This document shows positions 24,545 through 50,719 of a stretch of 64,000 bases of DNA, piece after piece. This stretch comes from Gerris lacustris. Its lineage: Eukaryota; Arthropoda; Insecta; Hemiptera; Gerridae. The position numbers were made by a program, and so were the translations under genes. The notes below the pieces were generated by a model. It was not told where the DNA came from. It ran no database searches and saw nothing but the letters and a program-made list of their open reading frames with translations. The DNA is taken from NCBI GenBank assembly GCA_951217055.1, contig OX578286.1, forward strand, positions 8,162,033 through 8,226,032, written 5' to 3'. Position 1 is the stretch's first letter. Every line of letters begins with the position of its first letter.

Positions 24545-25190
24545 CTTTGCGAGGAAGCTATGTGCCACATTAATTGGCAGAGTATTTTTTTATTTTGTCA
24601 CGTTGTTTGGGTTTATTCATTCTGGATCGGTGTTATTAATGGTGTTATAATGGTGGTGTTTAAATTTGAACCACTTCCACTAATCCAATTTCTCTGGCCA
24701 ACGAAGTCGGTGGTGTTTCGGTATCGAATTTGGAATCTTAATTAGACCATTTTTGGGACTTATCCGCGGACTCTAGGAGGGAATAACTGTTTACGTTTAC
24801 TTCAGAGTGAACTGCATGAGGACTTACCATTACAAGAAAGACAGCAATTGTTTATTTTTATCATGATAGGGCACGGGCACCACTTACTTTAGTACACACT
24901 GCTAGTAGAGTGTAGCCACACTACTTTTAGTAGAGCGAATTGGAGAAAAATCATTCGCCGTCTTTTTTGTAATGGTAGGTAAGTCCTCAAGGAGTCCAAT
25001 TTGACACAAAAACACGCCCGAAACACCACCGACTTCGTTGGCCAGAGAAATGGATTAGTGGAAGTTGTTCAAATTTAAACACCACCATTATAACACCATT
25101 AATAACACCGATCCAGAATGAATAAACCCTAACAACGTGACAAAATAAAAAAAAATAAATAAAAAAAGCCATTGTTATTTGAAAACCACT
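24545..25190. repeat. Imperfect foldback inside family H region
   Basis: 24,590-24,745 and 25,000-25,145 are inverted copies ('tcattctggatcggtgttat' and its complement). The ~250-bp spacer is also weakly symmetrical ('acttacc...ggtaagt'). Confidence 0.65.
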
Positions 25191-25214
25191 ATTTTTATTT
25201 TTTTTTATTTATTT

Positions 25215-25690
25215 TGCTTCCGAGCTTACCGAAGGTAACGGAAGCATTGTGTTCACTTTTGAGAACGAAAAACTTTTATGCCTCCGATTTCAAAAATTCC
25301 AAGACAGAAATCCGTTTCAGACATCAGGGAACATTTTTGGTCTCGTGTCTGTCTGTCTGTCTGTCTGTCTGTCGGTCTGTGTGTCCGCGAATTATGAAAC
25401 GTGCGACGATAACTTGAGTAAATGTCGACCGATTTTAATGAAATTTGGTAGACATGTTCATTTTACCAATGCTCAGGACGAGTTCGTTGGACAACGTTAT
25501 CCGTCCAAGCGTTCACGAGTAACGCTCACGTAAACTTGAACTTTATATTTAAAATTGGAATTTTTGGTCGGGGAAAAAATCTAACTTTATCTATTCAATG
25601 AGACTAACATTTTTTTCAAATACAATTTTTTAGTAAAACCAACAGCGACACCGCTATGAAGTGTTAAAGATCGCTAAAACTATTAATAGT
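25215..25690 (+). repeat. Chimeric family B/C repeat
   Basis: Starts with the family B hairpin end (GCTTCCGAGCTTACCGAAGG), passes a TGTC run, and continues into family C sequence from 'acgataacttgagtaaatgt' to 'accaacagcgacaccgctat'. The same B/C junction recurs at 61,940-62,930, so it is a family, not a chance fusion. Confidence 0.7.
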
Positions 25691-28290: not shown

Positions 28291-28351
28291 ATGCTTATAT
28301 ATTATATGAAATACTGGAACATACATTATAATATAAATAGTAAAGGCCAGG

Positions 28352-31300
28352 ATGTCAAGGAGAAACAGACAAAACTTCCAAGATCAAGATGAAAATAATC
28401 TACAAAATCATCAAGTAAATGATGACTCAAGAAGATCTCTTAGATCTTTTAAATTCGATCCATTCGACAACGAAACTGAAATTTGGAGGTATTATATTCA
28501 ACGATTTGAAAACGAATTAAAATTGTACAATATTAACGACGATGACAGTAAACGAACTTTACTACTCGCTAAAGTGGGACCACAACATTTCAAAATTTTA
28601 ATTGATCATTTTTTTCCGGAGGAAATTGCAGTCATCCCATATAATAGAATTAAAGAGACTTTAAACACGTATTATAACAGAAAAACCTGCATTTTAGCAG
28701 AAAGGGTTATGTTTTTAAGGAGAACTAGAAAAGAAGAAGAAACAGTGACACAATATGTGACAGCTTTACGAAGTCATGCTACTCAATGTGAATTCAACCG
28801 ATCACTCGACGAAAGACTAAGGGATCAACTCGTGTTGGGAATAGAAAACGAAAAGTGGCAACAAGAACTAATTAGACAACACCCGTCTAATGAAACGACA
28901 CTTTCCCAAGTACTTACTACAGCTATTACTTTAGAACAATCAACAAATCACCAAAAACTTTTAAAAATAAATTCAGACACAATAGACTTACCAATTAGAA
29001 ATTTACGAAACCAACATACATCTAAGACTTCACAGACAACAATTGTTCCTAAAGAGGCACGGAATTCAAGAAATACGTCAAATATTAAACTTAAACTGAT
29101 TAAGGGAGTTCATTGTCTCAAATGCACTTACAAACAACATACTGGTGGAGAACACTGTCCAGCTCGAGAAATAATTTGTTTTGCTTGCAACAAAACTGGG
29201 CATTTTGCAAAGGCGTGTATTGCCACAGGGAGAGCAGAAATAGTTTCAAAACATTTGCAAGCAAGACGTGTAACAGAACGGGAAAGTCAAAGGTCATCAG
29301 AGGAATCAGAAACAGAAATAGCTGAAGTGAGTCGAAATAAGAAAGGTACAAAAGCCTTATTAAAAGTAAAAATTAATGATAAGGATATAGAGATGTTGTA
29401 TGACCCGGGAGCATCAAAGTCAGTTATAAGTAAGGAAACCTGGAAATCAATAGGAAAACCTAAAATATCTCCAATTAATGACTCATTACAAGCGTACACT
29501 GGCATACATATTGAGACTCTTGGAAAATGCATAGTAGATGTTACATTAGATAAAAACACTAAGACGTTACCATTATTTGTCATAAAAGAAAAGGACTACT
29601 CACTATTTGGTCTAGACTGGACACTAGCGTTTAACTTACCGTTACCGAAGGGAATCAAAATATGTACCTTATCGTCTAACAAAGACAACATTCAAAACAA
29701 ATTAATGGAATGTCGTAACAAACACAAAAACTTATTTGAGGAGGGGACGGGTACTGTTCGACGATTTAAGGCTGAAATTCACTTGACAGATAAAGCAGTC
29801 CCAAAAATATTTCGACCAAGACCGGTCCCATTTGCGATGAAACCTGCAATAGAAGAAGAATTGTCTAGGTTAGTGAAAGAAGGAGTAATTGAAAAACTAG
29901 ATCCCTCTAAGACACCTATTGAATGGGCTTCTCCGATTGTAGTGGCAATGAAACCAACTGGGAAAGTTAGAATCTGCGCTGATTTCAAAGTGTCCATCAA
30001 CAAGTATATCACGACCGACAGACACCCACTGCCACGTTTTGAAGAAATCATGACCAAACTTAGTGGAGGTAAACAGTTCACAACCATCGATCTTAAAGAT
30101 GCTTACTTACAAGTTGTTGTAAGAGAAGACTGTAAAAAGTATTTTGTTATTTCTACACACAAGGGTTTCTTCGTCTATAACAAGCTCCCTTTTGGGGTTT
30201 CTTCAGCCCCAGCTATATTTCAGCGTATTATGGACCATATTCTTGGAGATATAGATATGGTAGCTTGTTATTTAGATGATATAATCATAACAGGGAAAAA
30301 TAAACAGGAACACGTGACTAACATTGAGGAAGTTCTATCAAGGTTACAAGAAGCGGGCTTTAAGGTACACGAGAACAAATGCAAATGGATGGAAGACACA
30401 GTTACATATCTCGGACACAAAGTAGATAAAAATGGCATATACCCAACAGATGATAAGTTACACGCAATACAGAATATGCCAACACCAAAGAATACAAGTG
30501 AATTACGAGCTTTTCTGGGATCTATAAATTACTACAGCAGATTTATTAAACACTTACAATCTCAATGTGCTAGTCTACATCGACTTATCAAGAAAGGGGC
30601 AAAATGGGATTGGAATGAGGCGGACGATGCAACAATAGAAGATATAAAAAAAACATTAAGTTCAAACACAGCATTAATACATTTTAATCAAGATCTACCT
30701 ATAGTGGTCACAGCAGATGCCAGTGATGTGGGGTTGGGGGCAGTACTATTCCACGAATTCCCAGACAAGACCTTACGCCCTATAGCGTATGCTTCAAGGT
30801 CACTCAAAAACTCGGAAAAAAAATATTCAACCATTGACAAAGAAGCACTGGCAATCATCTTTGCTACAAATAAATTTCATCAATACATTTTTGGAAGACA
30901 CTTTACCTTGAAAACAGACCACAAGCCACTAGAGCGGATAATGGGAGAAAATTGCGAGTTACCTAGGATGGCAGCAAATAGGTTAAGCCGTTGGGCAATA
31001 CATCTCACAAATTATGATTACACACTTAGGTACCAACCAGGAACGAACAATGCTCCCGCTGATGCATTGTCTAGATTACCAGTTTCTACGAATTTCGGCG
31101 AAGAAGTTGAAGAGTTAGGTTCGATAAATCAATGCCAGTTACAACGCTTACGGTTAGGAGAGATAAACGTTTCACGAAGGGAGTTAAAACAGGCCACTTT
31201 AGGGGATAAAATATTAAATAAAGTTGTTTCTTTTATTGAACAGGGCTGGCCCGATAAAGGTAGTTTGGAAAATGAATTAAGAGGGTATCACGATAAACGA

Positions 31301-32284
31301 GAAGAAATATCTTTTGAGGGAGGCATCGTAATGTGGCATGGAAGGTTAGTGATCCCACAAAAGCTAAGGAAAAACATTATGGATATACTCCATGAAGGTC
31401 ACCCAGGTATTACGGGAATGAAGTCGCAGGCCAGAATTTTAGTTTGGTGGCCAGGAATAGATTCAAGCCTGGAAGAGTATGGGAAACGGTGTGAGGCCTG
31501 TCAGAGCAATAGAGGAAAAACACCTGAAGCTCCGTTATTTTCTTGGACACCACCCTTGGAACCGTGGACACGCATTCATATAGATTTTGCGGGTCCATTT
31601 CAAAAACAATACTGGCTGGTTGTAGTAGACGCATTTTCAAAGTGGACTGAGATTCTGCCAACATCAACACTATCAGCAAACCAGACAGTAAGACTATTAA
31701 GGACAATATTTTCAAGGTTTGGGATCCCAAGGGCAATAGTCAGTGACAACGGCCCGACATTCACGTCTGAAACGTTTAAAATTTTTTGCCACAACAATAA
31801 TATCAAACATATGAAGACTACACCATATCATCCAAGATCTAATGGGTTAGCTGAAAGGATGGTACAGACATTCAAACGTAGGATGAATTCCGGGAAGGTT
31901 GAGGAAAACGATGGAGAGAAGAGGTTACAAAACTTTCTTATCAGCTATAGAAATACACCAAATAATACGACAGGAAGATCACCCGCCGAGATGTTACTGG
32001 GGAGGAGACTCCGAACACGATTAGACCATCTAAAACCAAACGTACATGAGGACATTAGGGACAATCTAGTAAGGCAGAAGGTATTGCATGACCGTTCGGC
32101 CGAGGAGAAGAGTTTCGAAGAGGGCGATGCGGTTTGGGTACAGACTGCAGAAGGAAAAGAATACGTGAAAGGGGTAATTAATCAGAAGACAGGAGATCTT
32201 TCCTACGTAGTGGAGGTGGAAGGAAAAATGAAGAGAAAGCATGCAGATCACCTACGTAAGCGGCTTGAAAACATTGTTGAGTGA
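28352..32284 (+). CDS. Gag-Pol polyprotein of LTR retrotransposon
   Basis: A single uninterrupted 1310-residue polyprotein that would drive cytoplasmic reverse transcription and nuclear integration of the element. Order: Gag (1 to about 250), zinc knuckles ending with CFACNKTGHFAKAC at ~276-289, retropepsin with active-site loop YDPGAS (D351), reverse transcriptase with YLDD at 640-643, RNase H with VVTADAS (D789), and integrase with an HHCC finger from ~H1014 and D1078, D1132, E1168 (a D-D35-E spacing). A C-terminal module with GDAVWVQ and KHADHLRKR resembles the GPY/F module. Pol order RT-RH-IN places it in Ty3/Gypsy. No env frame follows. The ATG lies 80 bp after the 5' LTR. The protease has DPGA where DSGA or DTGA is usual. 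Gag and Pol share one frame, so no frameshift site is needed. Confidence 0.95.
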   Translation: MSRRNRQNFQDQDENNLQNHQVNDDSRRSLRSFKFDPFDNETEIWRYYIQRFENELKLYNINDDDSKRTLLLAKVGPQHFKILIDHFFPEEIAVIPYNRIKETLNTYYNRKTCILAERVMFLRRTRKEEETVTQYVTALRSHATQCEFNRSLDERLRDQLVLGIENEKWQQELIRQHPSNETTLSQVLTTAITLEQSTNHQKLLKINSDTIDLPIRNLRNQHTSKTSQTTIVPKEARNSRNTSNIKLKLIKGVHCLKCTYKQHTGGEHCPAREIICFACNKTGHFAKACIATGRAEIVSKHLQARRVTERESQRSSEESETEIAEVSRNKKGTKALLKVKINDKDIEMLYDPGASKSVISKETWKSIGKPKISPINDSLQAYTGIHIETLGKCIVDVTLDKNTKTLPLFVIKEKDYSLFGLDWTLAFNLPLPKGIKICTLSSNKDNIQNKLMECRNKHKNLFEEGTGTVRRFKAEIHLTDKAVPKIFRPRPVPFAMKPAIEEELSRLVKEGVIEKLDPSKTPIEWASPIVVAMKPTGKVRICADFKVSINKYITTDRHPLPRFEEIMTKLSGGKQFTTIDLKDAYLQVVVREDCKKYFVISTHKGFFVYNKLPFGVSSAPAIFQRIMDHILGDIDMVACYLDDIIITGKNKQEHVTNIEEVLSRLQEAGFKVHENKCKWMEDTVTYLGHKVDKNGIYPTDDKLHAIQNMPTPKNTSELRAFLGSINYYSRFIKHLQSQCASLHRLIKKGAKWDWNEADDATIEDIKKTLSSNTALIHFNQDLPIVVTADASDVGLGAVLFHEFPDKTLRPIAYASRSLKNSEKKYSTIDKEALAIIFATNKFHQYIFGRHFTLKTDHKPLERIMGENCELPRMAANRLSRWAIHLTNYDYTLRYQPGTNNAPADALSRLPVSTNFGEEVEELGSINQCQLQRLRLGEINVSRRELKQATLGDKILNKVVSFIEQGWPDKGSLENELRGYHDKREEISFEGGIVMWHGRLVIPQKLRKNIMDILHEGHPGITGMKSQARILVWWPGIDSSLEEYGKRCEACQSNRGKTPEAPLFSWTPPLEPWTRIHIDFAGPFQKQYWLVVVDAFSKWTEILPTSTLSANQTVRLLRTIFSRFGIPRAIVSDNGPTFTSETFKIFCHNNNIKHMKTTPYHPRSNGLAERMVQTFKRRMNSGKVEENDGEKRLQNFLISYRNTPNNTTGRSPAEMLLGRRLRTRLDHLKPNVHEDIRDNLVRQKVLHDRSAEEKSFEEGDAVWVQTAEGKEYVKGVINQKTGDLSYVVEVEGKMKRKHADHLRKRLENIVE

Positions 32285-37000: not shown

Positions 37001-38024
37001 AAGGTCTCGTCCGGGTTGGGAGCCTTCCGTAGTCCTCCAATCTCGTCGGGTTAATCACCAGCCCTTGAGCTGGATGAGATGGGAAGGCTCTCAATCTTTC
37101 TCCGTATCTGACCATCACTTGGGTTCTCCTGAGAGATAGTGGTGGAACACCCGCGAGTCTGCATAGCGCAAGACTCGGCGTGGTGAAATGTGCTCCAGTC
37201 ACTATCCTCAGGCCCTTATTGAAGACAATATCTAATTTTTTAAGGTGCGACTTACGGGCAGAGGAAAAAACCTGGGAGGCGTATTCCAGCCTCGTGCGGA
37301 CCAGGGCGCAAAGCAATCTTACCAGGAGGTCCTGGTCTGCTCCCCAACGATGCTGGGCAACCACCCTCAGGGCGTTCAGGCTCCTTGTCGCCGTTTCGAC
37401 CAGATAACCAATGTGTTGAACCCATCTTAGTTCTTGGTCAAGGATCACCCCCAAAAAACGAGCGCTTTCCCTGAGTGGGATGGCCACATTATTCAGAGTT
37501 AGTTCTGGCAGGTTCAGGCTCCGCCGCGCCCGCGAAAAGAGCACGCACGCGGTTTTGGTGGCGGAGAAGCGGAAACCCCTCATCTCTGCTTCATCTGCGA
37601 TTACATTGATCGCGGTTTGGATCAACTCGCCTGTCGAGACAGGATCGCTCCCCCTGAGGAGGATGCTGAGATCATCCACAAAGAGTGATGGAAGAATCTC
37701 AGGGGTTAAGCGATCGGCGATGCCGTTGATCGCAACCGCAAAAAGGGTCACGCTAAGTACAGATCCCTGAGGGATCCCGTTCTCCTGAACACGTCTACCG
37801 GACAGCGCATCACCCACGCGGACGCGGAAGCACCTGTCCTGAAGGAAGCAGTTTATTAATTTGAGCAGTCGACCCCTTAAACCCCAGGACCTTAATTTTA
37901 GGAGAATGCCATGACGCCAAGTGGTGTCATAAGCGCTCTCAAGGTCAAAAAACACCCCGAGCGCGTGCTCTCCGTCAAGGAAAGCGTCCTGGATGAGGTT
38001 TTCAAGCCTCACGAGGTGGTCGAC
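36906..38024 (-). pseudogene. LINE ORF2, reverse transcriptase C-terminal part
   Basis: Reverse transcriptase palm and thumb of an I/Jockey-group LINE, cut from its N-terminal half by the 9.3-kb element whose TSD starts at 38,019. Visible motifs: FFDLESAYDTTW (catalytic Asp motif A), GIPQGSVLS (motif B) and FVDDLSILL (motif C with FVDD). The frame is colinear with 47,309-48,994 once the insertion and one TSD copy are discounted, so the LINE was probably still open here when the element landed. It ends out of frame with the RNase H segment. Confidence 0.88.
38019..38024. repeat. 6-bp target site duplication, left
   Basis: GTCGAC, matching 47,309-47,314. Directly precedes the AGTAGT terminus. 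Confidence 0.9.
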
Positions 38025-38535
38025 AGTAGTATGAATTGGAGAGTTCTGGACATAGGATATCGATTCGATAATATATTGATTTTGTATTGCATGTTTAGTC
38101 TAACCACCTGTCGTCTACTTGTACGACCGTGTGGAACCACCTCCGATCACCCCCACCCTTCCGATATGTTTTCGATAGCCTCACCTGTACACCTGTACAC
38201 GTGTAACGATGTATGTTGAAGAAGTCGAAGCTTGTTCTTGTGAAACGTTGTACGCGGGGCGTGGTCCGATGGTTGTCTGCGAAACGTCGATGTCTGTAAC
38301 CTATAAAAAATCTCGTGTTCCGACTGGTATTCGAACCCCCAATGTCTCGAGCGTGAATACTTTGACTAAACGATCTCGGACACAGAGCCAATATGGAGGG
38401 GGATGTCGAGAGTCGGTACATAAGGCTCGGTCATGAATAATAATTTTTGTAATTAATTCTAAAAATTTGTTTCTCCCCCCTCCCCTCGGGGGGCTCTTTT
38501 TGTTGTAATAAAGTGAGCCCCCTTTATAAAATAAT
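38025..38535 (+). repeat. Left terminal inverted repeat of the 9.3-kb element
   Basis: Matches the inverse of about 46,800-47,308 with a few short indels, from AGTAGT to the GC-rich 'cccctcggggggctct' hairpin and 'cccctttataaaataat'. Open frames on either strand of the TIRs are therefore duplicated and are not taken as genes. Confidence 0.92.
38320..38410 (-). other. tRNA-like segment in left TIR
   Basis: On the minus strand GTGTCCGA can pair with TCGGAACAC (one bulge), enclosing a B-box-like 'gggttcgaatacc'. It resembles a degenerate tRNA or pol III promoter and is repeated in the right TIR. T-arm pairing is poor. Confidence 0.3.
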
Positions 38536-38539
38536 CTTG

Positions 38540-38660
38540 GATTGTTTCGGCCCCCTTTGTCGGGGCTCTAAAAAATAATTTCGGGCCCCCCCCTTTATAA
38601 AATATTTTTCTCTATTCAAAAATTTAAATCGGGGCGCATTGAATTAAATATTGTTTTAGA
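38540..38660. repeat. Subterminal G/C-run repeats
   Basis: Short modules of the type 'ccccctttgtcggggc' and 'cccctttataaaat'. Relatives lie at 46,380-46,830 inside the other terminus. Confidence 0.6.
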
Positions 38661-38766
38661 AAAGAGGTTAAATCCTGTTGTACTATCTTACCACACCCGG
38701 TTAACTGGCAGACAAGTCTAGACAGGCTCTACGTGCAAACGGTCGGGGGAATGTTAAGACCACCTG

Positions 38767-38858
38767 GGACCGTTAAACGGGTCCGTTGGACTGTTAACGG
38801 GTCCGTTGGACCGTTAAACGGGTCCGTTGGACCGTTAAACGGGTCCGTTGGACCGTTA
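38767..38858. repeat. Palindromic ~21-bp tandem array
   Basis: Four to five units of about 21 bp, GGACCGTTAAACGGGTCC plus a short link. Each unit is a near-perfect palindrome. The array is framed by 'ttaagacc' (38,754) and 'ggtcttaa' (38,873). Confidence 0.85.
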
Positions 38859-39154
38859 TTGGGCCAACAAACGGTCTTAATCTGGTTAGAAAAAGAAATA
38901 TAAGACTTAAATATGGATTTAAACTATAAATTTAATGTAAAATTAGATAAGATAAAAACTACTGTAAATAAACACAAAGAAAGAGTTATTTTCTGTGCAT
39001 ATAACTAATAAAATAAATGTTTTAAAATAATGTCTTGTGTGTTATCTCTTCCTACCCTTGCAAAGATACTATTTTCGTAGAGATGACGTAATACCCTATG
39101 ACCTTGGAAAGGTAGCCGAAACGTGGTAGCCGAAAGTACAGTAACCCTCCTTTC

Positions 39155-39556
39155 TTACCTATATGAAATAAGATGACCGCAAGGGAGGAAAGCTACTTCT
39201 AGAGGTTGTTCTAAACATATTTTACAGATCGAAGCTTCTGTTACAGCGGTAGATTGTAGTTCAGACGAGTTGTAATTTTTACACGTTCCATATCTGACTT
39301 TTTCGATGAAATAACATCCTTTCTTCATAAGAAAATAGTTACACGTTGAGAACCACTTTGCATGCTCCACCCAGGGATTGTCGTCTTTCTCCCAATCTTT
39401 GTGTCCACCGCCGCAGTAAAAACATATAGTTTTATCTTCTTTTCCGGTGTAATAAAATCCTGCTTCACTGAGAAGTTTCGGTTCGACTGAGCCAGTCCAT
39501 GAGAAAAAAGAATTGATCCTATCGTCCACTGAAGCAAACTCGGGGAAACTAACCAT
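39155..39556 (-). CDS. BIR-RING protein, IAP-like, RING cut short
   Basis: Inhibitor-of-apoptosis-like protein, 133 residues as read. IAPs bind caspases or other death factors through BIR domains and ubiquitinate partners through a C-terminal RING. The BIR (about 8-76) has exact zinc spacing C45-x2-C48-x16-H65-x6-C72 and the usual GFYYTG and DW motifs. The RING starts C111-x2-C114-x11-C126-x-H128 and then stops after GHLISYR. At that stop the DNA reads AG|GTAAGA, a consensus splice donor, so the RING may continue after an intron; no second half was found down to 38,540. Either the gene is spliced to an exon I could not recognise, or the RING is truncated and the protein could lack E3 activity. 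TATATAA lies about 35 bp upstream of the ATG. Tandem with the gene at 39,607. Confidence 0.85.
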   Translation of the reverse strand: MVSFPEFASVDDRINSFFSWTGSVEPKLLSEAGFYYTGKEDKTICFYCGGGHKDWEKDDNPWVEHAKWFSTCNYFLMKKGCYFIEKVRYGTCKNYNSSELQSTAVTEASICKICLEQPLEVAFLPCGHLISYR

Positions 39557-39584
39557 TCTAGATTTGCGTCTATATCATGACTTA

Positions 39585-39591
39585 TTATATA
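39585..39591 (-). promoter_or_regulatory. TATA box of BIR-RING gene
   Basis: TATATAA on the minus strand, 35 bp from the ATG at 39,556, implying a very short leader. Confidence 0.5.
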
Positions 39592-39606
39592 AATTGAGCG
39601 GTATCA

Positions 39607-40305
39607 TTATTTTTTAATGTCTTGCATATAATATGAACACTTGTGATCGGGACAATGGTAAGGTTTTACTAATGTAAAACAGTATACACACATAAGGTTA
39701 TGACGGCTATCGGTGGGTTTGAAGAAACCATTCAAGGCTAGTCCGGCTTTCTTTTGAGAGAATATATTCTTAAACGTGTGCAACCTAGGTATAGTGTCCA
39801 TCAGGTTTATCCGACTTATGTTCAAAGTAGACCACTGGAGGAGAGCGTAAAGTTTAACGTTTGAACATCTGTCTTTAAATCCATATTTATGATTGATACA
39901 ACTGATTTCCTTGTGTAACGGGTAGAATTCCTCCACCAATTTGTTTAATGTCGTATCGCATCCAAAATCTTCCAAGTTGAATATGGGTTTACCGATTAGG
40001 TCACTTATAAAAGAACATTTCGTCTTACCTTTGGCGAAGACCAATCTGCTGTCGCGAGTTTCTCTCTCGACGATGTCACCAAGTCGACTGTAGTCCACTT
40101 CGCCGCTGTTATACTTGAGACCATGTAATCGATCGGTTAACCACCTGTTGGTGACAATGTCCAATTTGACATTTGACGACGGTGGTTTGAAGTAATAATA
40201 ATGTATCGATGCCGTCGGCGAGGAATTACACAAGGATAACTCTTTCACAATAAAGTCGGTTGTACTCCTAAACGCCTCAAACTCAATCAGTGTAAATAGC
40301 ACCAT
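39607..40305 (-). CDS. Exonuclease-like domain fused to a degenerate BIR
   Basis: 232 residues. The N-terminal ~155 residues share four ordered motifs with the product of 44,264-44,977: LIEFEAF near the start, VFAKGKTKCSF, a conserved LEDFGC segment and CSNVKLYALLQW. The pattern resembles a DnaQ-like (DEDD) 3'-5' exonuclease fold, but the first acidic motif is E-F-E, so catalysis is doubtful. This assignment is inference. Residues ~165-225 resemble a BIR (RLHTFKN, GFFKP, CVYC at 206-209), but the loop to the following His/Cys is shorter than the x16 rule, so zinc binding may be altered. A TATA box (40,358-40,352) and a TCAGTT initiator (40,322-40,317) lie upstream. Divergent from the gene at 40,467. 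Function unknown. Confidence 0.75.
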   Translation of the reverse strand: MVLFTLIEFEAFRSTTDFIVKELSLCNSSPTASIHYYYFKPPSSNVKLDIVTNRWLTDRLHGLKYNSGEVDYSRLGDIVERETRDSRLVFAKGKTKCSFISDLIGKPIFNLEDFGCDTTLNKLVEEFYPLHKEISCINHKYGFKDRCSNVKLYALLQWSTLNISRINLMDTIPRLHTFKNIFSQKKAGLALNGFFKPTDSRHNLMCVYCFTLVKPYHCPDHKCSYYMQDIKK

Positions 40306-40316
40306 GGTCCAAACAC

Positions 40317-40358
40317 AACTGACCGTACACTCAAGGCGAACCGCATTGTACTTTTATA
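40317..40358 (-). promoter_or_regulatory. TATA and initiator of exonuclease-BIR gene
   Basis: TATAAAA starting at 40,358 and TCAGTT at 40,322-40,317 on the minus strand. Spacing (38) is a little longer than the usual ~31. Confidence 0.45.
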
Positions 40359-40429
40359 TCTATTACCGACCAATAGAAACGTTTCTAACATCCGCATTGA
40401 TTATATTGACACCGAGTTTAACGGAAATA

Positions 40430-40463
40430 TCAGTCGCTTTCAGACCTTAGTGAGGTACGGATC
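40430..40463 (+). promoter_or_regulatory. Inr + DPE core promoter
   Basis: TCAGT with A+1 at 40,432, and GGATC at +28 to +32 (40,459-40,463), an exact match to the arthropod DPE consensus RGWYV at its required spacing. No TATA box. The ATG follows at 40,467. Confidence 0.6.
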
Positions 40464-40466
40464 GTT

Positions 40467-40889
40467 ATGGATTTGTTATATCAATCAGTCATTACACGTT
40501 TCAGTTCGAAGAAATGTATTATCATCGGATTGAATGCTATCGACGGCGAACCTACATTGAGAATCCAACAAGGCAGAGTTAGTGTAGACGTCGGTGAATA
40601 CATCTTGAAAGTAATAAAGATTAATCAACAGACGATAAACAATTTTTTTATGGAAAAGAACAGTGAAGAGACGTTATACTTGGACAGGAAAACAACTAAT
40701 GATGTGTACTTGGAGAAACAAAAAAAGAAGAAAACCGCTTTAATTTTCTCAGAATTGAATGCATGGCAGTTAGTAACAGATAACGTTTTACAAAGCATAA
40801 AACTACACAAGAAAGAGGTTATTCAACTTCTTTCAAACCTTCACAAGATCGAAGAATACATCGAAACTTTAAAGAAAATATGGAGTAAG

Positions 40890-40920
<31 letters not shown>

Positions 40921-41075
40921 AATTTTATTTTATTATTTATCGTTCTTCTTATTAGTTAATTTCAATTATTTATTTTATAGACACCAACGAAGGAGCTGAA
41001 ATTCCTGAAGTTTACTTTGACGTAGATGAGCGCCTCAAGGAAATACGAATGAACCAAACATTTTCCGAGGAATAA
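40467..41075 (+). CDS. Small protein in two exons, unknown function
   Basis: Exon 1 is 40,467-40,884 and exon 2 is 40,981-41,075. The intron 40,885-40,980 starts GTAAGT, contains a T run and ends TTTATAG. Splicing gives a 170-residue protein and avoids a poly-Phe read-through. AATAAA overlaps the stop codon. The N-terminal part has alternating hydrophobic beta-like segments (RVSVDVGEYILKVIKI). The middle is Lys-rich, then ALIFSELNAWQLVTDNVLQ and a helical region follow, with an acidic tail. The order of strands then a helix faintly recalls the PC4/SUB1 DNA-binding fold, but this is weak. The start is supported by an Inr+DPE promoter 35 bp upstream. An intron inside a virus-like cargo suggests host origin. 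Confidence 0.65.
40885..40980 (+). other. 96-bp intron
   Basis: GTAAGT donor, T-rich interior, TTTATAG acceptor. The flanking codons join in frame (phase 1) and open 30 further codons. Confidence 0.7.
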
Positions 41076-41505
41076 AAATAAAAACACAGATTTGTAATTT
41101 TTTGTACAATTTTTATTTTACAAAATAAATGTCTTTTTGTTATTTATCCACTTGCTCTTTTCATTCAGCCCGAAATAATTTACATAGAATTTATTATTTT
41201 TTTCTCTGTAGAATGTTTATTAACAAATAATACAAAGTTTTTTAGTTACGTTTATTTTGTACAAAAATGTCCACATTTTGACGCTTTAAGAACTAATAAA
41301 GTTAAAAGTACAAACATCTGCTTTACAAAAGAAATCTTTAAGATAATAAAAATAGAATACAAAAATCTCAGTTGTTTTCACTACTCACAATTCTATGACC
41401 ACAACTATAACCTAGTATATGGTTTATTAATTTACAATTACCATTGCAGCAAACATATATAAAGGATTTTAATAATATATGACAGTCTCAAAGAAGTAAT
41501 CATAT
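41076..41505. other. Intergenic between convergent genes
   Basis: AT-rich. Holds the 3' ends of the spliced gene and, from the other side, the MADF gene. No further gene seen. Confidence 0.5.
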
Positions 41506-42810
41506 TTACATCTTATGAATTAATTTATTGTATCTGCTTTGTCTTTTAGTTTCCCAACTCCGTCTAAGCTTATTTAGCATGGCTATATAATTGATTGAGC
41601 ATGGTTCGTTTTCTCTTAAACCTGGAAGTCTATATTTGGTAACCTCAGAGGAGTCGTAACTCCCAATTGAATTAGGTGATTCATCAACGCTACATGTTTT
41701 ATAGTTGTTTAAGTCATATTTCTTTTTGTGTAAATCTCGTGACTGTACTTTATCCATATCGGAATCATCAGAAATATATCTATTTAAAAATGTTAACTGA
41801 GCGTGACTATATTTCGGAGCCTTAGAGGATTCGTAGCTCATAGGAGATTTATCAACGCTACATGTTTTATAGTTGTTAAAATCATATTTAGAATTAACAA
41901 TTTTTTGACATTTATTTTGGTATATGTCTCCTGACTCTACCTCATCCATGTCGGGGAGTGATGAATTATCAGAAATAACACTATTTAGAAATGTTAACTG
42001 TGGGTGATTATATTTCGGAGCCTTAGAGGAATCATAGCTCCTATTTGAATTAATTTTTGTATCAAAACTGCATGTTTTATTTAAGTCATAATTAGAATTA
42101 TCAATTTTTAGATAATTCTTTGAGTGTGAATCTCCTAAATTTATCCCCTCAATTTCGGAGATTGATGAATCTTCAGAATCAACATCAATAGTTAGGTTTG
42201 TCTTTCCTGGACTGGTTTCTGTGTCTTTACAAGAACCCAGATCTGGCTCCTTATCCAACTCTTCTTGCTTGCTTTCTTCAACATGTTTATTAAATTTACC
42301 ACCTGGTTGCTTAATTACTTCCAGTGGTTGCTGGAGATTAAAACATTTTGATACAGTTTCAGTTGTAAAAGAATCCATTGGTTCTTTTATCGGTGGATTC
42401 TGGTTATCTATAGCTTCTTTTTGCTTAGTTAAAGTTTTAAATTCAACACCGTCTATTGCGGAAGCTTGCTGTGTTAGAACCTCTGGACCTCGCAGAAAAT
42501 CTATATCGGTGAAATACCACAAACTAGGAGTATGAAGATCTACAGTGTCTTTATACGTTTTTTCTTTGGTATTAATTTTCTTCAGTTGCCTACGGTACGC
42601 TGTACGCAGAATATTAATTTTTCTACGTACCAGACCCCTATCAGCTTTGGGTTCAATTTCTTTCATCTTTTCCACCAGTTTTTCGTACGCCATGTCCTTC
42701 TTATTCCTATTTTTATATGCTTTACTTTTTATGTCCCACAGTGCTGGTAAGTTGTGGTATAAAATTATAAACTCACGCCAGAATTTCTTATTACTCTTTG
42801 GTAATGTCAT
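41506..42810 (-). CDS. MADF-domain protein with internal repeats
   Basis: Putative DNA-binding regulator of the MADF (Adf-1/Myb-SANT-like) type. The N-terminal ~100 residues show FWREFIILYHNLPALWD, YKNRNKK, AYEKL, KINILRTAYRRQLKKI and SLWYFTDIDFL, the ordered MADF hallmarks. The rest is Ser/Asp/Lys-rich, with a repeated block containing SSKAPKYNHPQLTFLN-type sequence (DNA ~41,990-42,040, ~41,795-41,845, remnant ~41,630-41,665) alternating with NNYKTCSVD. No BESS motif was recognised. The frame is open to an ATG at 42,879, but TATAAAA at 42,917 and CAGT near 42,885 put the transcript start almost on that codon, so the ATG at 42,810 (434 residues) is preferred. It sits beside the palindromic array, which it might bind; that is speculation. 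Confidence 0.8.
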   Translation of the reverse strand: MTLPKSNKKFWREFIILYHNLPALWDIKSKAYKNRNKKDMAYEKLVEKMKEIEPKADRGLVRRKINILRTAYRRQLKKINTKEKTYKDTVDLHTPSLWYFTDIDFLRGPEVLTQQASAIDGVEFKTLTKQKEAIDNQNPPIKEPMDSFTTETVSKCFNLQQPLEVIKQPGGKFNKHVEESKQEELDKEPDLGSCKDTETSPGKTNLTIDVDSEDSSISEIEGINLGDSHSKNYLKIDNSNYDLNKTCSFDTKINSNRSYDSSKAPKYNHPQLTFLNSVISDNSSLPDMDEVESGDIYQNKCQKIVNSKYDFNNYKTCSVDKSPMSYESSKAPKYSHAQLTFLNRYISDDSDMDKVQSRDLHKKKYDLNNYKTCSVDESPNSIGSYDSSEVTKYRLPGLRENEPCSINYIAMLNKLRRSWETKRQSRYNKLIHKM

Positions 42811-42883
42811 AATAATAAAAATTAAAACACAGTGAGAGAATGAACAGGATAAGGTCTTTCCTCGATCAACTATCGTCAAACAC

Positions 42884-42917
42884 TGTCATAAACAGATTGG
42901 GAAAAATCCCTTTTATA
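42884..42917 (-). promoter_or_regulatory. TATA promoter of MADF gene
   Basis: TATAAAA on the minus strand from 42,917 and a CAGT initiator about 33 bp downstream. Confidence 0.5.
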
Positions 42918-43004
42918 CAATTAGTTTGCACAAAACATGACACATAAAATACTATTTGCTCGGAAATGTTAACTTAATTGACTATATGTGTAATGTAAGG
43001 CTTT

Positions 43005-44165
43005 GATGTTTCCGCAAACATCAAACAGTCCCATTCATAGTTAGGATGATTTGATTGCGCTAATGTTTGCGCAAACATCAAACAGCCCCATTTAAAATTA
43101 ATATGATTGCGCTAATGTTTGCGCAAACATCAAACAGCCCTATTTAAAATTAATATGATTGTGCTAGTGTTTGCGCAAACATCAAACAGCCCCATTTAAA
43201 ATTAATATGATTGCGCTAATGTTTGCGCAAACATCAAACAGCCCCATTTAAAATTAATATGATTGTGCTAGTGTTTGCGCAAACATCAAACAGCCCCATT
43301 CATAGTTAGGATGATTGCCCATTTGTTTGCGCAAACATCAAACAGCCCCATTTAAAATTAATATGATTGCCCATTTGTTTGCGCAAACATCAAACAGCCC
43401 CATTCATAGTTAGGATGATTGCCCATTTGTTTGCGCAAACATCAAACAGCCATATTCATAGTTAGGATGATTGCCTATTTGTTTGCGCAAACATCAAACA
43501 GCTCCATTTAAAGTTAATATGTTTGCGCAAACAATCTTTGTTTACGTGTTTGCGCAAACATCAAACAGCCCTATTCATAGTTAGAATGATTGCCCATTTG
43601 TTTGCGCAAACATCAAACAGCCATATTCATAGTTAGGATGATTGCCCATTTGTTTGCGCAAACATCAAACAGCTCCATTTAAAGTTAATATGTTTGCGCA
43701 AACAATCTTTGTTTAGGTGTTTGCGCAAACTTCAAACAGCCCTATTCATAGTTAGGATGATTGCCCATTTGTTTGCGCAAACTTCAAACAGCCCTATTCA
43801 TAGTTAGGATGATTGCCCATTTGTTTGCGCAAACATCAAACAGCCATATTCATAGTTAGGATGATTGCCCATTTGTTTGCGCAAACATCAAACAGCCCCA
43901 TTTATAGTTAATATGTTTGCGCTAATGTTTGCGTTGCGCAAACATCAAACAGCCCCAATCATAGTTAGGATGATTGCCCATTTGTTTGCGCAAACATCAA
44001 ACAGCTCCATTTAAAGTTAATATGTTTGCGCAAACAATCTTTGTTTAGGTGTTTGCGCAAACATCAAACAGCCATATTCATAGTTAGGATGATTGCCCAT
44101 TTGTTTGCGCAAACATCAAACAGCCCCATTTAAAGTTAATATGTTTGCGCAAACAATCTTTGTTT
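43005..44165. repeat. Palindromic 52-bp tandem array, hr-like
   Basis: 23 exact TTTGCGCAAA palindromes between 43,066 and about 44,155, plus degenerate ones (43,008, 43,925). Most repeat every 52 bp, as ...TTTGCGCAAACATCAAACAGC... with linkers of 'cccatttaaaattaatatga' or 'ccatattcatagttaggatg'. Some units carry a second palindrome. It fills the space between divergent TATA promoters of the MADF gene and the exonuclease-BIR gene. Baculovirus and other insect DNA virus hr regions have the same design and act as enhancers or origins. Confidence 0.9.
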
Positions 44166-44224
44166 AGTTCTACACGACCGAATCATACTGTACACGTCCT
44201 CTGACGGAATGATCTATCAAGTGG

Positions 44225-44231
44225 TATAAAA
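44225..44231 (+). promoter_or_regulatory. TATA box of exonuclease-BIR gene 2
   Basis: TATAAAA overlapping the first ATG of the frame. A CCAGTT initiator-like site lies at 44,257-44,262, which argues the first ATG is not transcribed. Confidence 0.55.
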
Positions 44232-44263
44232 TGGTCAGAGACGGAGGGGCGGGCAACCAGTTT

Positions 44264-44977
44264 ATGTCAAGAGTTTATTCAAGCAACATGTCGTCTTCAT
44301 ACACCGAAAATAATAACTGCACGAGAGAAAGTTGTGCCGCCGTATTAGATATTCAGTTTTATCATGACACCAAAAATGTACGTGAGATTGCCATAGTAGA
44401 CGTAAATGAATTGAAAATCGTGTACCAAAATTCCTTTTCGAGTGCACAACAGATCCGGTTACCCGAAGTTCGTTCACGGTGGTCTCCTTGCACATATAAT
44501 CAAGAATATATGAAGAATCTCCTCTATCAACTAGTGGATATTTTCCTTTCGCGATACGATTTCATTTTCATGAAAGGTTTCGGCAAAGGATCATATATGA
44601 AACAACTGTATACATCGCATCAAATTTACCTGTTGGATGAGTTAAGATGTCCTCCTATCACCAGTTTGATCAAGAAATATAATATCGGTCAAAATAAATC
44701 TGCCGCGTCCAGAGCTATGGTACTCAGTTACTGGTGTAAAGACATTAGTTTAAGTCTATACGATTATAGCACTAGACTCTTGACTTTTAGGAATTGGACC
44801 ATACAAAACATATCCCCAGAGAAAATGGCGGAATTCGGACTAACTCATTGGCATAGAGGATATACGAGGTGTATTTATTGTAAAACCCTCATCAATGACT
44901 GGGAAAATTGTGATAACATTTCATCTCATCACTCGTGGTCTTCTTCGAGCTGCCCCTTAAATAAGTTTGAAAATTAG
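44264..44977 (+). CDS. Exonuclease-like domain fused to a BIR, paralogue 2
   Basis: Related in architecture to the gene at 39,607. The N-terminal domain carries LDIQFYHDTKN, a hydrophobic IAIVDV strand, FIFMKGFGKGSYMKQLY, LLDELRC and SRAMVLSYWCKD, in the same order as the paralogue. DnaQ-like fold is inferred; the first motif is D-I-Q, so the usual D-x-E is not intact. The C-terminal BIR is canonical in spacing: CIYC, x16, H, x6, C (codons for C203, C206, H223, C230 from this start), preceded by LTFRNW and followed by a 7-residue tail. No RING. The frame opens at 44,231, but that ATG lies inside the TATA box, so the next ATG (44,264), or 44,288, is favoured. Upstream is the palindromic array; downstream on the same strand is the RING-WWE gene. 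Confidence 0.78.
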   Translation: MSRVYSSNMSSSYTENNNCTRESCAAVLDIQFYHDTKNVREIAIVDVNELKIVYQNSFSSAQQIRLPEVRSRWSPCTYNQEYMKNLLYQLVDIFLSRYDFIFMKGFGKGSYMKQLYTSHQIYLLDELRCPPITSLIKKYNIGQNKSAASRAMVLSYWCKDISLSLYDYSTRLLTFRNWTIQNISPEKMAEFGLTHWHRGYTRCIYCKTLINDWENCDNISSHHSWSSSSCPLNKFEN

Positions 44978-45028
44978 TATATAAATAGATAAATATCTTG
45001 TATTTCGAATATTTCATAGTTTTAAAAA

Positions 45029-45218
45029 ATAAATGTTTGCATAAATTCCTTTTTCATTTATCAAAGGAAGTCTGCGACCGCAGAACATCCTGTTGTTGAA
45101 GCCATTCGTCCTCTTTCACCTCAGTCTACAGTCCTTGATCAACCTTCGACTAAGTTAGAGGTTCTGTTAGGTGACTTTACCCTCAGCATATTTGAGTCTA
45201 TCGCTACTGTTGTATAAG
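45029..45218 (+). other. Open stretch of ~60 codons, no ATG
   Basis: An open frame without a start, ending TAA at 45,216-45,218, with ordinary composition (for example PLSPQSTVLDQPSTKLEVLL). An acceptor-like 'tttatcaaag' sits near its beginning. Could be a spliced 3' exon or a relic. No family recognised. Confidence 0.25.
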
Positions 45219-45259
45219 TTCAAAGTAGAAGATCATTTATTAAATTAAAAAATTGTAAC

Positions 45260-45796
45260 ATGATATCAAAGACTGTTACTTCAGAGGATCAATGCAAAAG
45301 AAATATTGAAAACGATTGTCCTGTTTGTCTTCATCCATGTGATCATCCAGCTAAGTTACCATGCTGTCATGTATTTTGCTACTTGTGCATCAAGGGAATA
45401 ACACGCATTGGTCAACCTTGTCCTATGTGTAGGTCTCCAATACCTCATAACTATGCTGAGCGTCCGCAACTTGTGACTTCTAATACACCTTGTACCGATG
45501 TTAGTGAAGAAAATGAAGATAAAAATACGCACTGTTGGTTCTACCAGGGAAAGAATGGCGGTTGGTGGCAGTTTCAGCAGAGGATATCTGATGAAATCGA
45601 AGCGAATCGCATCTTAGGTATTTCTTGCTTTGACATGATGATTTGTGGATCGCTTTATGTCATAGATATAATAGGAAGCGTACAATATCCTAAAAACTGT
45701 CCTACGAGACGTAGGCGCTTATTGCGTGATTTACCTTCTCATATTACCAGGATAGGTATTGCAGGTATACCTAGTGTACCAGTTAATTTAAACTAA
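45260..45796 (+). CDS. RNF146 (Iduna)-like RING-WWE ubiquitin ligase
   Basis: 178 residues. RNF146 is an E3 ligase that reads iso-ADP-ribose of poly(ADP-ribose) through its WWE domain and ubiquitinates PARylated proteins such as tankyrase substrates; it protects against PARP-dependent death. The RING C20-x2-C23-x11-C35-x-H37-x2-C40-x2-C43-x10-C54-x2-C57 is complete. The WWE domain (~93-160) has WFYQGKNGGWWQF, a basic PTRRRRLLRDL turn and the RNF146-specific GIAGIPS-type tail. The protein is shorter than animal RNF146 (~350) because the disordered C-terminus is absent. It appears intact, single-exon, and lies within the mobile element, so it is probably a captured host gene. Active-site integrity and expression are not known. 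Confidence 0.88.
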   Translation: MISKTVTSEDQCKRNIENDCPVCLHPCDHPAKLPCCHVFCYLCIKGITRIGQPCPMCRSPIPHNYAERPQLVTSNTPCTDVSEENEDKNTHCWFYQGKNGGWWQFQQRISDEIEANRILGISCFDMMICGSLYVIDIIGSVQYPKNCPTRRRRLLRDLPSHITRIGIAGIPSVPVNLN

Positions 45797-46795
45797 TTTG
45801 TTAATTGAAAGAAATTTCTATAATAATATAATTATATGTATTTAGTATTTCTTATTCGATTAAAATAAGTATATATGATTGTATACTTTTAATCGTGATG
45901 ATAATCATTTCAAATTGCCAACTATACATGTTTATAAAATTAAATATTAAATTTTGTTTATATTTGATTCATTTTTAATAATGATTAAAATCATAGTACT
46001 ATATTATTGTAATAATATGTTAAAAATGCATTTAAAAATAAAAATATATATATATATTATATATAAACTATTCGTATTATATTTTGTTCTTTTTATCGCT
46101 TATCAATTTCCTTTTTCCTGTAACACTAACAGAATATTACAGAGTTGTAAGCTTTTACAAATGAAAAGAATGTTTTACTATAATGAACTACAACTCGTAG
46201 GAATTTTATGTGGGCACCGCCAGAGGAGATTACGAGTTCGAATACCAGAAGGGTAAGGGATTATTTTTATAAACATAAGCTCATATACGACATTAGTTAT
46301 AATATAATTTACATGTGGAATTCAAAAGAGCGTGGATGGGTCTATAATATAAGCGGGGAACTTTGAAAATAACAGATACTGCTCCCGACAAAGGGGGGCT
46401 ATTTTAATTCGGGGTTACGCTTTTCGAAGAAGGGGGGCCGAATCACCGGGCGTCACCGCTAACGTTTCGCAGACAGCCTATGACTTCGCCCAGCGTCAGG
46501 CGGCCCCAGGTACCGGTGGTAGGGGGCGGACATATGTTATCCTACCCGATGACGCAACCGACAGCGTTATCGGAGTTTAATTTTTCGAGAAAGGGGGCAG
46601 CCCCCGAAATAAATTTTTTAGAGGTAATTATTTCCCAACATAGAGACACACAAAAATATTATCCAGATGACGTAGTCAAGAGGGCCCCTGAGCCCCGATT
46701 TAATTTTCTCGACAAAGGGGGGCTGCGAAATATTTTTTCGTAATAATGTGGGCGGCGGGAGGCGAATACCGGAGAAGTAAGTATTTAGAGAATAT
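45797..46795. other. AT-rich spacer and subterminal G/C-run repeats
   Basis: 45,797-46,300 is AT-rich, with one tRNA B-box-like 'gagttcgaatacc' at about 46,232. 46,380-46,795 holds repeats such as 'cgacaaaggggggct' and 'gagaaagggggcagccccc', related to 38,540-38,660. An 87-codon frame here is repeat-driven and not called a gene. Confidence 0.5.
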
Positions 46796-46799
46796 TATT

Positions 46800-47308
46800 T
46801 TATAAAGGGGGCCCGAAATATTTTTTTACAACAAACAGAGCCCCCCGAGGGGAGGGGGGGGAGAAACAAATTTTTAGAATTATTTAAAAAATTATTATTC
46901 ATGACCGAGGCTTATGTACCGACTCTCGACATCCCCCTCCATATTGGCTCTGTGTCCGAGATCGTTTAGTCAAAGTATTCACGCTCGAGACATTGGGGGT
47001 TCGAATACCAGTCGGAACACGAGATTTTTTATAGGTTACAGACATCGACGTTTCGCAGACAACCATCGGACCACGCCCCGCGTACAACGTTTCACAAGAA
47101 CAAGCTTCGACTTCTTCAACATACATCGTTACACGTGTACAGGTGACCGGACAGGTGAGGCTATCGAAAACATATCGGAAGGGTGGGGGGAGGTGGTTCC
47201 ACACGGTCGTACAAGTAGACGACAGGTGGTTAGACTAAACATGCAATACAAAATCAATATATTATCGAATCGATATCCTATGTCCAGAACTCTCCAATTA
47301 TAACTACT
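46800..47308 (-). repeat. Right terminal inverted repeat of the 9.3-kb element
   Basis: Inverse of 38,025-38,535, including the GC hairpin 'agccccccgaggggagg' (~46,844), the tRNA-like segment (~46,953-47,030) and the ACTACT terminus. The 129-codon and 101-codon frames here are TIR duplicates. Confidence 0.92.
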
Positions 47309-47314
47309 GTCGAC
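47309..47314. repeat. 6-bp target site duplication, right
   Basis: GTCGAC, identical to 38,019-38,024. Confidence 0.9.
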
Positions 47315-48994: not shown

Positions 48995-50298
48995 CAGCTT
49001 TTAAGGGGAGACTCCTCAGCCACCTCGAGGTCTGGCTCTGAGCCGCCATTTTTTGCTCTCCGTAGGCCCCTTGGTTTCCCTTTGGGCCAACCTTTCTTTT
49101 TTTTCTTAACCTCCTTGGGCGAGTCACCCTCGGAGGCAGACCTCTGTCGTGCCCGTTTAAGGGATCCTGACAGAGACCCCCCCGGAGAATTCTCGCCTTC
49201 GGTGTCAGAGGAAGGCTCAAGGACATCCTTAAGGGGGCTTTCAAGGGGTTCTGAGGGGAGAGAGCAAGAGGATCCTCTCTTCGTCAGCGTGGTCCCTTTG
49301 TTGGCTCGCTGCTGCTTGGGCCGAAGAGCCGGTATTATTTTTTTTTCAGCCCCGGGAGACGATCTCGGAGGGCTGATATTTGATCTCCCTATGGAGGAGG
49401 TTGGTTTGGGTTGGCTGGGAGACGGAACCCTTCCGGCCGTTGGAAAATCGCTCGACCCAGGTTTAGGGTGAGTGGAGCGTTTAGCTTCTCTTTTTGGTTT
49501 AGGCTTATCGACCTTTTCCTCTTGCCTGGTAGACAGAAGAGAGGTTTGGGAGGATTGGCCTAATCCAGATGGTCCAGCCCTCGTTGGAGGTCCGAGAGGG
49601 TGGGTGTTTTCTTTCCTTAGGGAGGAGAGAGGTTTTAGTTGGCGGGAGGGTAGGGGTCCCTCCGCCGTAGGAATTTCCCTCGAGGGGATTGGTGTAGTGA
49701 TAGCCTTGCCAACCTGGCCGGTAGCTCGAACTCGGTCTGAGTAAGAGATACCCGGTATCACTCTCGATTTACTCTGGACCAGCTGTCTAGCCTCTCTGTA
49801 AGTAAGACGATCAAAAGCCATTACTTTTTGGACCTCACGCTCAGCCTTGAGCGCCAGACATTGTTGGGACGTAACTGTGTGAGGTCCTCCACAGTTGACA
49901 CATTTGGGGGGCTCTTGACAAGGCGTGCCTTTAAGATGTTGGTCCCCGCAGACACATGTCTCTGGCTTTGTACAGCGTTGGACTATATGTCCAAAACGTT
50001 GGCATTTGAAGCAACGCATTGGTGCCTGCACGTATGGTCTTACCCGGAGACGATAAAGCACTGTGGCAAAGATATGGTCAGGGAGTTGGGGCTTGTTAAA
50101 CCTAAGCCGATATAAGTGGTTCGGCTTAAAGGTGTCAGACACCTTTCTCCCCATCCTCACTACCTCAGTTACTCCCTGTCCGCTGAGACCTTCAAGGATT
50201 TCGGCTTCAGTGCACATGTGGAGGTCTGCACAGTACACGACTCCAAGGCTGGTATTTAGGCGTGCGTTCGGCACGACCTCCACTTCAGCTTCCAACAC
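48994..50298 (-). CDS. LINE ORF1, Gag-like RNA-binding protein (5' partial)
   Basis: Nucleic-acid-binding ORF1 of the LINE. It shows Gag-like segments, then CCHC-type knuckles: CFKCQRFGHIVQRC, a second CVCGDQH-containing finger and CVNCGGPHTVTSQQC. A Ser/Pro/Lys-rich C-terminal half ends in a basic KKKKKGWPKGKPRG tract. The first codon given is GTG, not a true start; the frame is open to a stop near 50,390 without ATG, so the N-terminus is missing or mutated. GC content is higher than the surroundings, as in the rest of this LINE. Confidence 0.85.
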   Translation of the reverse strand: MLEAEVEVVPNARLNTSLGVVYCADLHMCTEAEILEGLSGQGVTEVVRMGRKVSDTFKPNHLYRLRFNKPQLPDHIFATVLYRLRVRPYVQAPMRCFKCQRFGHIVQRCTKPETCVCGDQHLKGTPCQEPPKCVNCGGPHTVTSQQCLALKAEREVQKVMAFDRLTYREARQLVQSKSRVIPGISYSDRVRATGQVGKAITTPIPSREIPTAEGPLPSRQLKPLSSLRKENTHPLGPPTRAGPSGLGQSSQTSLLSTRQEEKVDKPKPKREAKRSTHPKPGSSDFPTAGRVPSPSQPKPTSSIGRSNISPPRSSPGAEKKIIPALRPKQQRANKGTTLTKRGSSCSLPSEPLESPLKDVLEPSSDTEGENSPGGSLSGSLKRARQRSASEGDSPKEVKKKKKGWPKGKPRGLRRAKNGGSEPDLEVAEESPLKS

Positions 50299-50719
50299 TG
50301 ATTTAAGTTCCTTAAGCTTTATAATCTGGTCCGCACTATCTAACTCCAGGTGGAGCCCGTCTTTTCCTAAGCGTTTCAGACTTTTAGGTCATAGATGTGT
50401 ATTAAATATAAAATATTATGATCAGTTCTTGTAATTTAATTGTAATTTGCAGTCTAATTGAGGGTCAAAGCCGTCCCACTCTGCAAGGGAGGGATGATGA
50501 GAAGGTAAAATTAGTCGACCTTACTTGAGATTTGAGAGAGAGATGGAGAGGGTATGGGTGATCACAATCGGATTCGAGACTTAGACCTGGCTACTTGAAG
50601 GTGGCGCAGGTCTTACTTCAAACAGAGTCGTCAGTAAAGGTGTTTTGGCCCCAGAAACAGTCAATAGCGCCTCGAACAGGGGAAACAAAAAGAATCCACG
50701 ATTATCGTGTTCTGTTTCC

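What the first reader, a model, noticed from the sequence alone, without database searches (positions are those of the whole stretch)
38025..47308. Polinton-like element whose visible cargo is death-control and ubiquitin genes
Boundaries are exact: a LINE RT frame is interrupted and a 6-bp duplication GTCGAC flanks ~500-bp TIRs starting AGTAGT. This termini/TSD combination is that of Maverick/Polinton elements. None of their core genes is visible. In their place are a BIR-RING gene, two exonuclease-like/BIR genes, an RNF146-like ligase, a MADF gene and a small spliced gene, most with their own compact promoter. I infer a non-autonomous virus-like element that has accumulated host-derived regulators of cell death and ubiquitination. 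I do not know of a described element with this set.
Basis: partly seen in the sequence, partly recalled or inferred. Interest (0 to 1): 0.92.

Follow-up and report, generated by a model that had tools for sequence, protein, structure and literature searches.

The report
Maverick-type transposon carrying anti-death genes
A 9.3-kb stretch of an animal genome has the ends and insertion scar of a virus-like jumping element (a Maverick, or Polinton), but in place of the usual virus genes it carries genes resembling the cell's own controls of cell death and protein tagging.

Summary
A 9,284-bp element (38025-47308) sits inside a LINE reverse-transcriptase frame, with ~490-bp TIRs (476 of 483 ungapped columns identical, 16 gap columns) and a 6-bp duplication, GTCGAC. 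Leaving it out gives one open LINE frame of 934 codons. Its termini, AGTAGT...ACTACT, are the commonest end motif of vertebrate Mavericks, which also make 6-bp TSDs (PMC8097293). Published termini argue against IS3EU, GingerRoot and Ginger. Pfam recognised no Maverick core gene in the predicted genes or in the 57 other open stretches of 45 codons or more lying wholly inside. Cargo: a BIR protein with a cut RING, two exonuclease-fold/BIR proteins (one BIR degenerate), an RNF146-like RING-WWE ligase, a MADF protein and an orphan with an inferred intron. Twenty-four palindromes lie between two divergent genes. Best reading: a non-autonomous Maverick-type element carrying anti-apoptosis/ubiquitin cargo. 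The decisive test, other TIR copies in the source genome, could not be run: the genome search did not complete (16 requests).

The parts
38019..38024 (.). left target-site duplication GTCGAC
38025..38515 (+). left terminal inverted repeat, begins AGTAGT
   Evidence: 476 of 483 ungapped columns identical to right TIR, 16 gap columns
38767..38858 (.). 21-bp tandem repeat, 4.4 copies
39155..39556 (-). 133-aa protein: one canonical BIR plus the N-terminal half of a RING ending at CGH
39607..40305 (-). 232-aa protein: exonuclease-like fold (low-confidence model) plus degenerate BIR; diverged paralogue of the gene at 44264
   Evidence: (24% over 140 aa, E 2e-4)
40467..41075 (+). orphan gene, inferred exons 40467-40884 and 40981-41075, 170 aa, no recognised domain
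   Evidence: splice sites inferred from GT..AG and frame, no transcript seen
41506..42810 (-). 434-aa MADF-domain protein with internal repeats
   Evidence: 1.7e-15; direct repeats D4, D5
42911..42917 (-). TATA-like motif (TATAAAA) upstream of the MADF gene
43007..44155 (.). 24 copies (21 exact, 3 with one mismatch) of the palindrome TGTTTGCGCAAACA, mostly 52 bp apart
   Evidence: 0.01 expected in the window
44225..44231 (+). TATA-like motif (TATAAAA) upstream of the right exonuclease/BIR gene
44264..44977 (+). 237-aa protein (248 aa if begun at 44231): DEDD-exonuclease-like fold plus canonical BIR
   Evidence: start codon inferred
45260..45796 (+). 178-aa RNF146-like E3 ligase: RING then WWE
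46818..47308 (-). right terminal inverted repeat, ends ACTACT
47309..47314 (.). right target-site duplication GTCGAC

Best explanation
This is a non-autonomous Maverick/Polinton-type element. Shown: its ends, its TSD, its clean insertion into an open LINE frame and its gene content. Inferred: a retrovirus-type integrase supplied by an autonomous Maverick or adintovirus recognised the (AGT)2 termini and joined them to cuts staggered by 6 bp; copies were made through the TIRs by the helper's polymerase. Inferred: the cargo acts in the host cell. The BIR protein binds pro-death proteins (its BIR aligns closely with the third BIR type of cIAP/XIAP; the groove residues are recalled, not tested), the RING-WWE protein ubiquitinates poly-ADP-ribosylated targets as RNF146 does, the exonuclease-fold/BIR proteins act as nucleic-acid-binding or decoy IAPs, and the MADF protein binds the palindrome bank and sets expression of the two divergent genes. 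Together they would keep a cell alive, or quiet, while the element or its helper replicates.
For: Ends and TSD match the commonest vertebrate Maverick type (against PMC8097293). PMC12220804 says rve integrase typically gives 6-bp TSDs (passage) and PMC10045372 gives 6 bp for Polinton (passage). TIR of about 490 bp within the reported 46-1,447. Open 934-codon LINE frame at the empty site. Cargo domains. The two exonuclease/BIR genes are diverged paralogues; two unnamed database proteins 46-48% identical to one of them keep the BIR signature, which suggests constraint. Foldseek matches among viral models include a nudivirus protein (E 0.003) and ichnovirus proteins (E 0.005-0.11), in a list that also holds phage and giant-virus proteins. 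[quoted passage not shown]
Against: No other copy of the TIR, no autonomous partner and no host identity: 16 requests to search the source genome did not complete. 9.3 kb is below the 12.7-24.6 kb of intact vertebrate Mavericks. TSD length is not unique to Mavericks, and endogenous mavirus-like elements mostly show 3-5 bp (PMC8547959 passage). The RING of the BIR gene is cut and one BIR is degenerate, so part of the cargo may be decaying. Foldseek itself found no solved structure at E 0.001 or better for the exonuclease-like model (best 0.0028, an SPT6 chain; exonuclease X 0.01). Function of every gene is inferred.
Confidence: 0.74

Rival explanations
1. A remnant of an autonomous Maverick: an accessory region survived while the core modules were deleted, so the cargo set is an accident of deletion and not a stable element type.
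For: PMC8097293 reports accessory regions with diverse ORFs flanking the core modules in most intact elements. The cut RING and one degenerate BIR show departure from standard form.
Against: Both ends are intact and 7 of 483 ungapped TIR columns differ. No remnant of a core gene was recognised in 57 of 57 other open stretches of 45 codons or more; shorter pieces were not scanned. A deletion before insertion would still leave a non-autonomous element.
Confidence: 0.16
2. A non-autonomous element of another cut-and-paste superfamily with 6-bp TSDs (IS3EU, GingerRoot, a 6-bp hAT, Dada).
For: IS3EU usually and GingerRoot make 6-bp TSDs. MADF/Myb proteins are known from PIF/Harbinger elements (recalled).
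Against: IS3EU ends TA..TA, GingerRoot mostly TA..TA and occasionally TG..CA; Ginger ends TGTNR with 4-bp TSDs; here AGTAGT..ACTACT. No transposase domain found. hAT and Dada termini were not checked in any call.
Confidence: 0.07
3. A composite of host DNA: the genes are ordinary host genes or fragments and the TIR pair is a chance inverted duplication.
For: RNF146-like, MADF and BIR proteins resemble cellular families.
Against: An exact 6-bp TSD outside the TIR tips and an open 934-codon LINE frame at the empty site indicate that the whole interval entered as one piece; later insertions into it are not excluded.
Confidence: 0.03

Closest known systems
Maverick/Polinton elements (vertebrate set of PMC8097293)
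   Same: (AGT)2//(ACT)2 termini, 6-bp TSD, TIR of several hundred bp; accessory genes present as a category
   Different: 9.3 kb instead of 12.7-24.6 kb; no polymerase, integrase, ATPase, protease or capsid gene recognised
Adintoviruses (Maverick relatives)
   Same: [quoted passage not shown] terminal repeats (recalled)
   Different: Defined by PolB, hexon and integrase genes, none seen here
Burro giant retroelements of planarians
   Same: Mobile element with BIR and ubiquitin-related domains, proposed to meddle with apoptosis and ubiquitination (PMC6431247 passages)
   Different: An LTR retrotransposon polyprotein; here separate genes in a DNA element
RNF146
   Same: RING then WWE, aligned from residue 19 to 170 with chain 4qpl_A
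   Different: 178 aa, inside a mobile element
cIAP/XIAP-type BIR proteins
   Same: Canonical C-x2-C-x6-W-x9-H-x6-C and the stretch PWVEHAKWF shared with BIRC2
   Different: Single BIR; RING cut after CGH

Membership tests
Maverick/Polinton | 6-bp target-site duplication | tested here: met
   GTCGAC on both sides
Maverick/Polinton | (AGT)2//(ACT)2 or (AG)3//(CT)3 end motif | tested here: met
   AGTAGT / ACTACT against PMC8097293 section 7
Maverick/Polinton | TIRs of tens to hundreds of bp or more | tested here: met
   about 490 bp; 46-1,447 reported
Maverick/Polinton | size of intact elements, 12.7-24.6 kb | tested here: not met
   9,284 bp; range from vertebrates
Maverick/Polinton | protein-primed PolB and rve integrase encoded | tested here: not met
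   Pfam: none in the 6 predicted genes or in 57 of 57 other open stretches of 45 codons or more wholly inside the element. It is therefore not filed as an autonomous Maverick, only as an element with Maverick-type ends
Maverick/Polinton | capsid, ATPase and protease genes | tested here: inconclusive
   No Pfam match in the same scans; diverged capsid proteins can escape profiles
Maverick/Polinton | autonomous copies with the same TIR in the host | not tested
   The genome search unanswered in 16 requests
IS3EU / GingerRoot | TA..TA (or TG..CA) termini | tested here: not met
   AG..CT termini; published termini
Ginger1/Ginger2 | TGTNR termini, 4-5 bp TSD | tested here: not met
DEDD exonuclease (right copy, 44264-44977) | fold | tested here: met
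   [not shown]
DEDD exonuclease (right copy) | catalytic D-x-E and further acids | tested here: inconclusive
   first motif reads D-x-Q in this protein and in both database relatives; motif recalled, no residue-level structural alignment made
IAP (BIR) proteins | BIR zinc signature | tested here: met
   2 of 3 BIR-type proteins of the element
IAP with RING E3 activity | complete RING | tested here: not met
   profile positions 3-24 of 49; no CxxC downstream
RNF146-like E3 | RING followed by WWE | tested here: met

The most novel reading that the evidence does not exclude
A stable class of Maverick satellites: elements that keep only Maverick ends and have replaced the whole core with a host-manipulation cassette (IAP-like, exonuclease/BIR fusion, RNF146-like) under a shared palindrome-bank promoter controlled by their own MADF protein. 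Such an element would be copied by a helper Maverick or adintovirus while keeping infected cells alive, possibly as an accessory genome segment of that helper.
Probability: 0.25. Interest if true: 0.87.

Novelty: new variant of a known kind. Interest (0 to 1): 0.64.

Why it matters
Mavericks are studied as endogenous viruses with capsid and polymerase genes. A copy with authentic ends and a clean insertion but only death-control and ubiquitin cargo would suggest that Maverick integration machinery also moves gene cassettes in trans, a route for IAP-like and E3 genes to spread between animal genomes. It also gives a directly searchable marker: the ~490-bp TIR with AGTAGT ends.

Tried and rejected
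Relatives: none in IMG/VR viral contigs by a 30-base TIR pattern or by the right and left exonuclease/BIR proteins, their alignment, the RNF146-like or the BIR-RING protein; the MADF and spliced proteins were not tried there. None in phage records (right exonuclease/BIR protein) or prokaryotic genome contigs (the alignment). These collections are viral or prokaryotic and the tool says that records of the window's own genome may be left out, so the absence says little. Protein database: 2 relatives of the right exonuclease/BIR protein, none for the left one or the spliced gene; the other proteins were not searched there (cap reached).

Rfam and tRNA: no match in the window. NCBIfam: 7 proteins, only matches far below cut-off. 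Weak Pfam matches below curated cut-off (E 0.02-0.8) turned up in some of the scans; none is a Maverick core family. The element (blastn, E 1e-3) and 5 of its 6 proteins (tblastn, E 1e-2; the spliced one was not given) have no second place in the window.

Papers: PMC8097293 (section 7 whole, other passages); PMC10045372, PMC2836005, PMC12220804, PMC6431247, PMC11071296, PMC8363768, PMC5803895, PMC8547959, PMC8504770, PMC4028283, PMC4642659, PMC6035795 (passages only). I saw no paper that links a Maverick/Polinton to a BIR or IAP cargo in listings 8, 9, 19, 20, 39, 40, 61, 75, 87, 94. Searches listed only the top 20 of 6,413, 15 of 105, 15 of 29 and 15 of 88; PMC8905726, PMC9679248 and PMC2836289 hold the words Maverick or Polinton and inhibitor of apoptosis and were not opened. 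The library lacks most subscription journals; the founding Polinton papers and the first adintovirus paper were not held or not sought.

Full report
What is there. The hexamer GTCGAC lies on both sides (38019-38024, 47309-47314), the element starts AGTAGT and ends ACTACT, and its arms form inverted repeats of about 490 bp with 476 identical, 7 mismatched and 16 gap columns. Leaving out the element and one hexamer in a script gives a LINE reading frame of 934 codons without a stop; the flanks carry RVT_1 profile positions 1-50 and 56-204. So the interval entered an open LINE frame between these exact points. The insertion may be fairly recent, judged by the similarity of the TIRs if they were identical on arrival (inference).

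What class of element. PMC8097293 (section 7 read whole) gives for intact vertebrate Mavericks the commonest end motif 5'-(AGT)2//(ACT)2-3', TIRs of 46-1,447 bp (mean 402) and sizes of 12,723-24,620 bp; 6-bp TSDs are in another passage. PMC12220804 ties 6-bp TSDs to the rve integrase and PMC10045372 gives 6 bp for Polinton (passages); PMC8547959 gives 5-6 bp for mavirus and Mavericks but mostly 3-5 bp for endogenous mavirus-like elements (passage). The window element meets ends, TSD and TIR length, and fails on size and on the polymerase and integrase. Superfamilies whose termini I could read do not fit: IS3EU TA..TA and GingerRoot TA..TA or TG..CA, both with 6-bp TSDs; Ginger1 and Ginger2 TGTNR with 4-bp TSDs. 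In the window, AGTAGT and ACTACT with equal outer hexamers 3-30 kb apart occur once; 14 of 300 single-base shuffles also give at least one, so the motif alone is not proof. Its weight comes from lying at the very tips of a 490-bp TIR, with an open LINE frame at the empty site.

What it lacks. I scanned the predicted genes and the 57 other stop-free stretches of 45 codons or more lying wholly inside the element (listed; 9, 10, and 10, 10, 10 and 8). No other stretch reached a family's curated cut-off, and no polymerase, integrase, ATPase, protease or capsid profile appeared even among the weak matches. Shorter pieces were not scanned, and capsid proteins too diverged for Pfam are not excluded.

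A regulatory region. Between the MADF gene and the right exonuclease/BIR gene lie 24 copies of the palindrome TGTTTGCGCAAACA (21 exact, 3 with one mismatch; 0.01 expected), mostly 52 bp apart. The bank ends about 90 bp from the TATA-like motif of the MADF gene and about 70 bp from that of the exonuclease/BIR gene (positions). A shared upstream control region, perhaps bound by the MADF protein, is the simplest reading; no binding was tested, and a replication or silencing role is not excluded.

How it most likely works. Shown: ends, TSD, insertion, gene content. Inferred: integration by a Maverick-type integrase in trans, replication by a helper polymerase, and a cargo that suppresses death and redirects ubiquitination in the cell. 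[quoted passage not shown] Against over-reading: the cut RING and one degenerate BIR show that two of the six genes are not of standard form.

Limits. The source genome could not be searched, so copy number, an autonomous partner, host identity and selection on the cargo are unknown; that the host is an animal is itself an inference from the gene and LINE types. The collections that did answer are viral, bacterial and archaeal, and their silence carries little weight.

Verdict. I rate it a new variant of a known kind. If other copies carry the same cassette it becomes considerably more interesting.

Noticed in passing
window 28337-32281 (+): A 1,315-codon open frame with aspartyl protease, reverse transcriptase, RNase H and integrase domains: an apparently uninterrupted Gypsy-type pol (type recalled).
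   Followed up: no
window 48997-50388 (-): A 464-codon frame upstream of the LINE ORF2, no Pfam match, with CCHC-like knuckles by eye; probably the LINE ORF1.
   Followed up: no
window 38480-38620 and 46340-46830: Both sub-terminal regions hold the G-rich motif AAAGGGGG (3 copies left, 4 right; 2 elsewhere in the window); possibly binding sites. No chance control was run.
   Followed up: partly
window 38324-38346, 46226-46248 and 46989-47011: GTTCGAATACC, resembling the B box of a tRNA gene (recalled), occurs in both TIRs and once more near the right end (I11 and D7); ARAGORN finds no tRNA in the window.
   Followed up: partly
window 22836-23174, 25183-25530, 61911-62618: Frames with the words ASELTEGNGS and FQKFQDRNPFQ (first two) or a similar stretch by eye (third): an unidentified repeat of this genome.
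   Followed up: no
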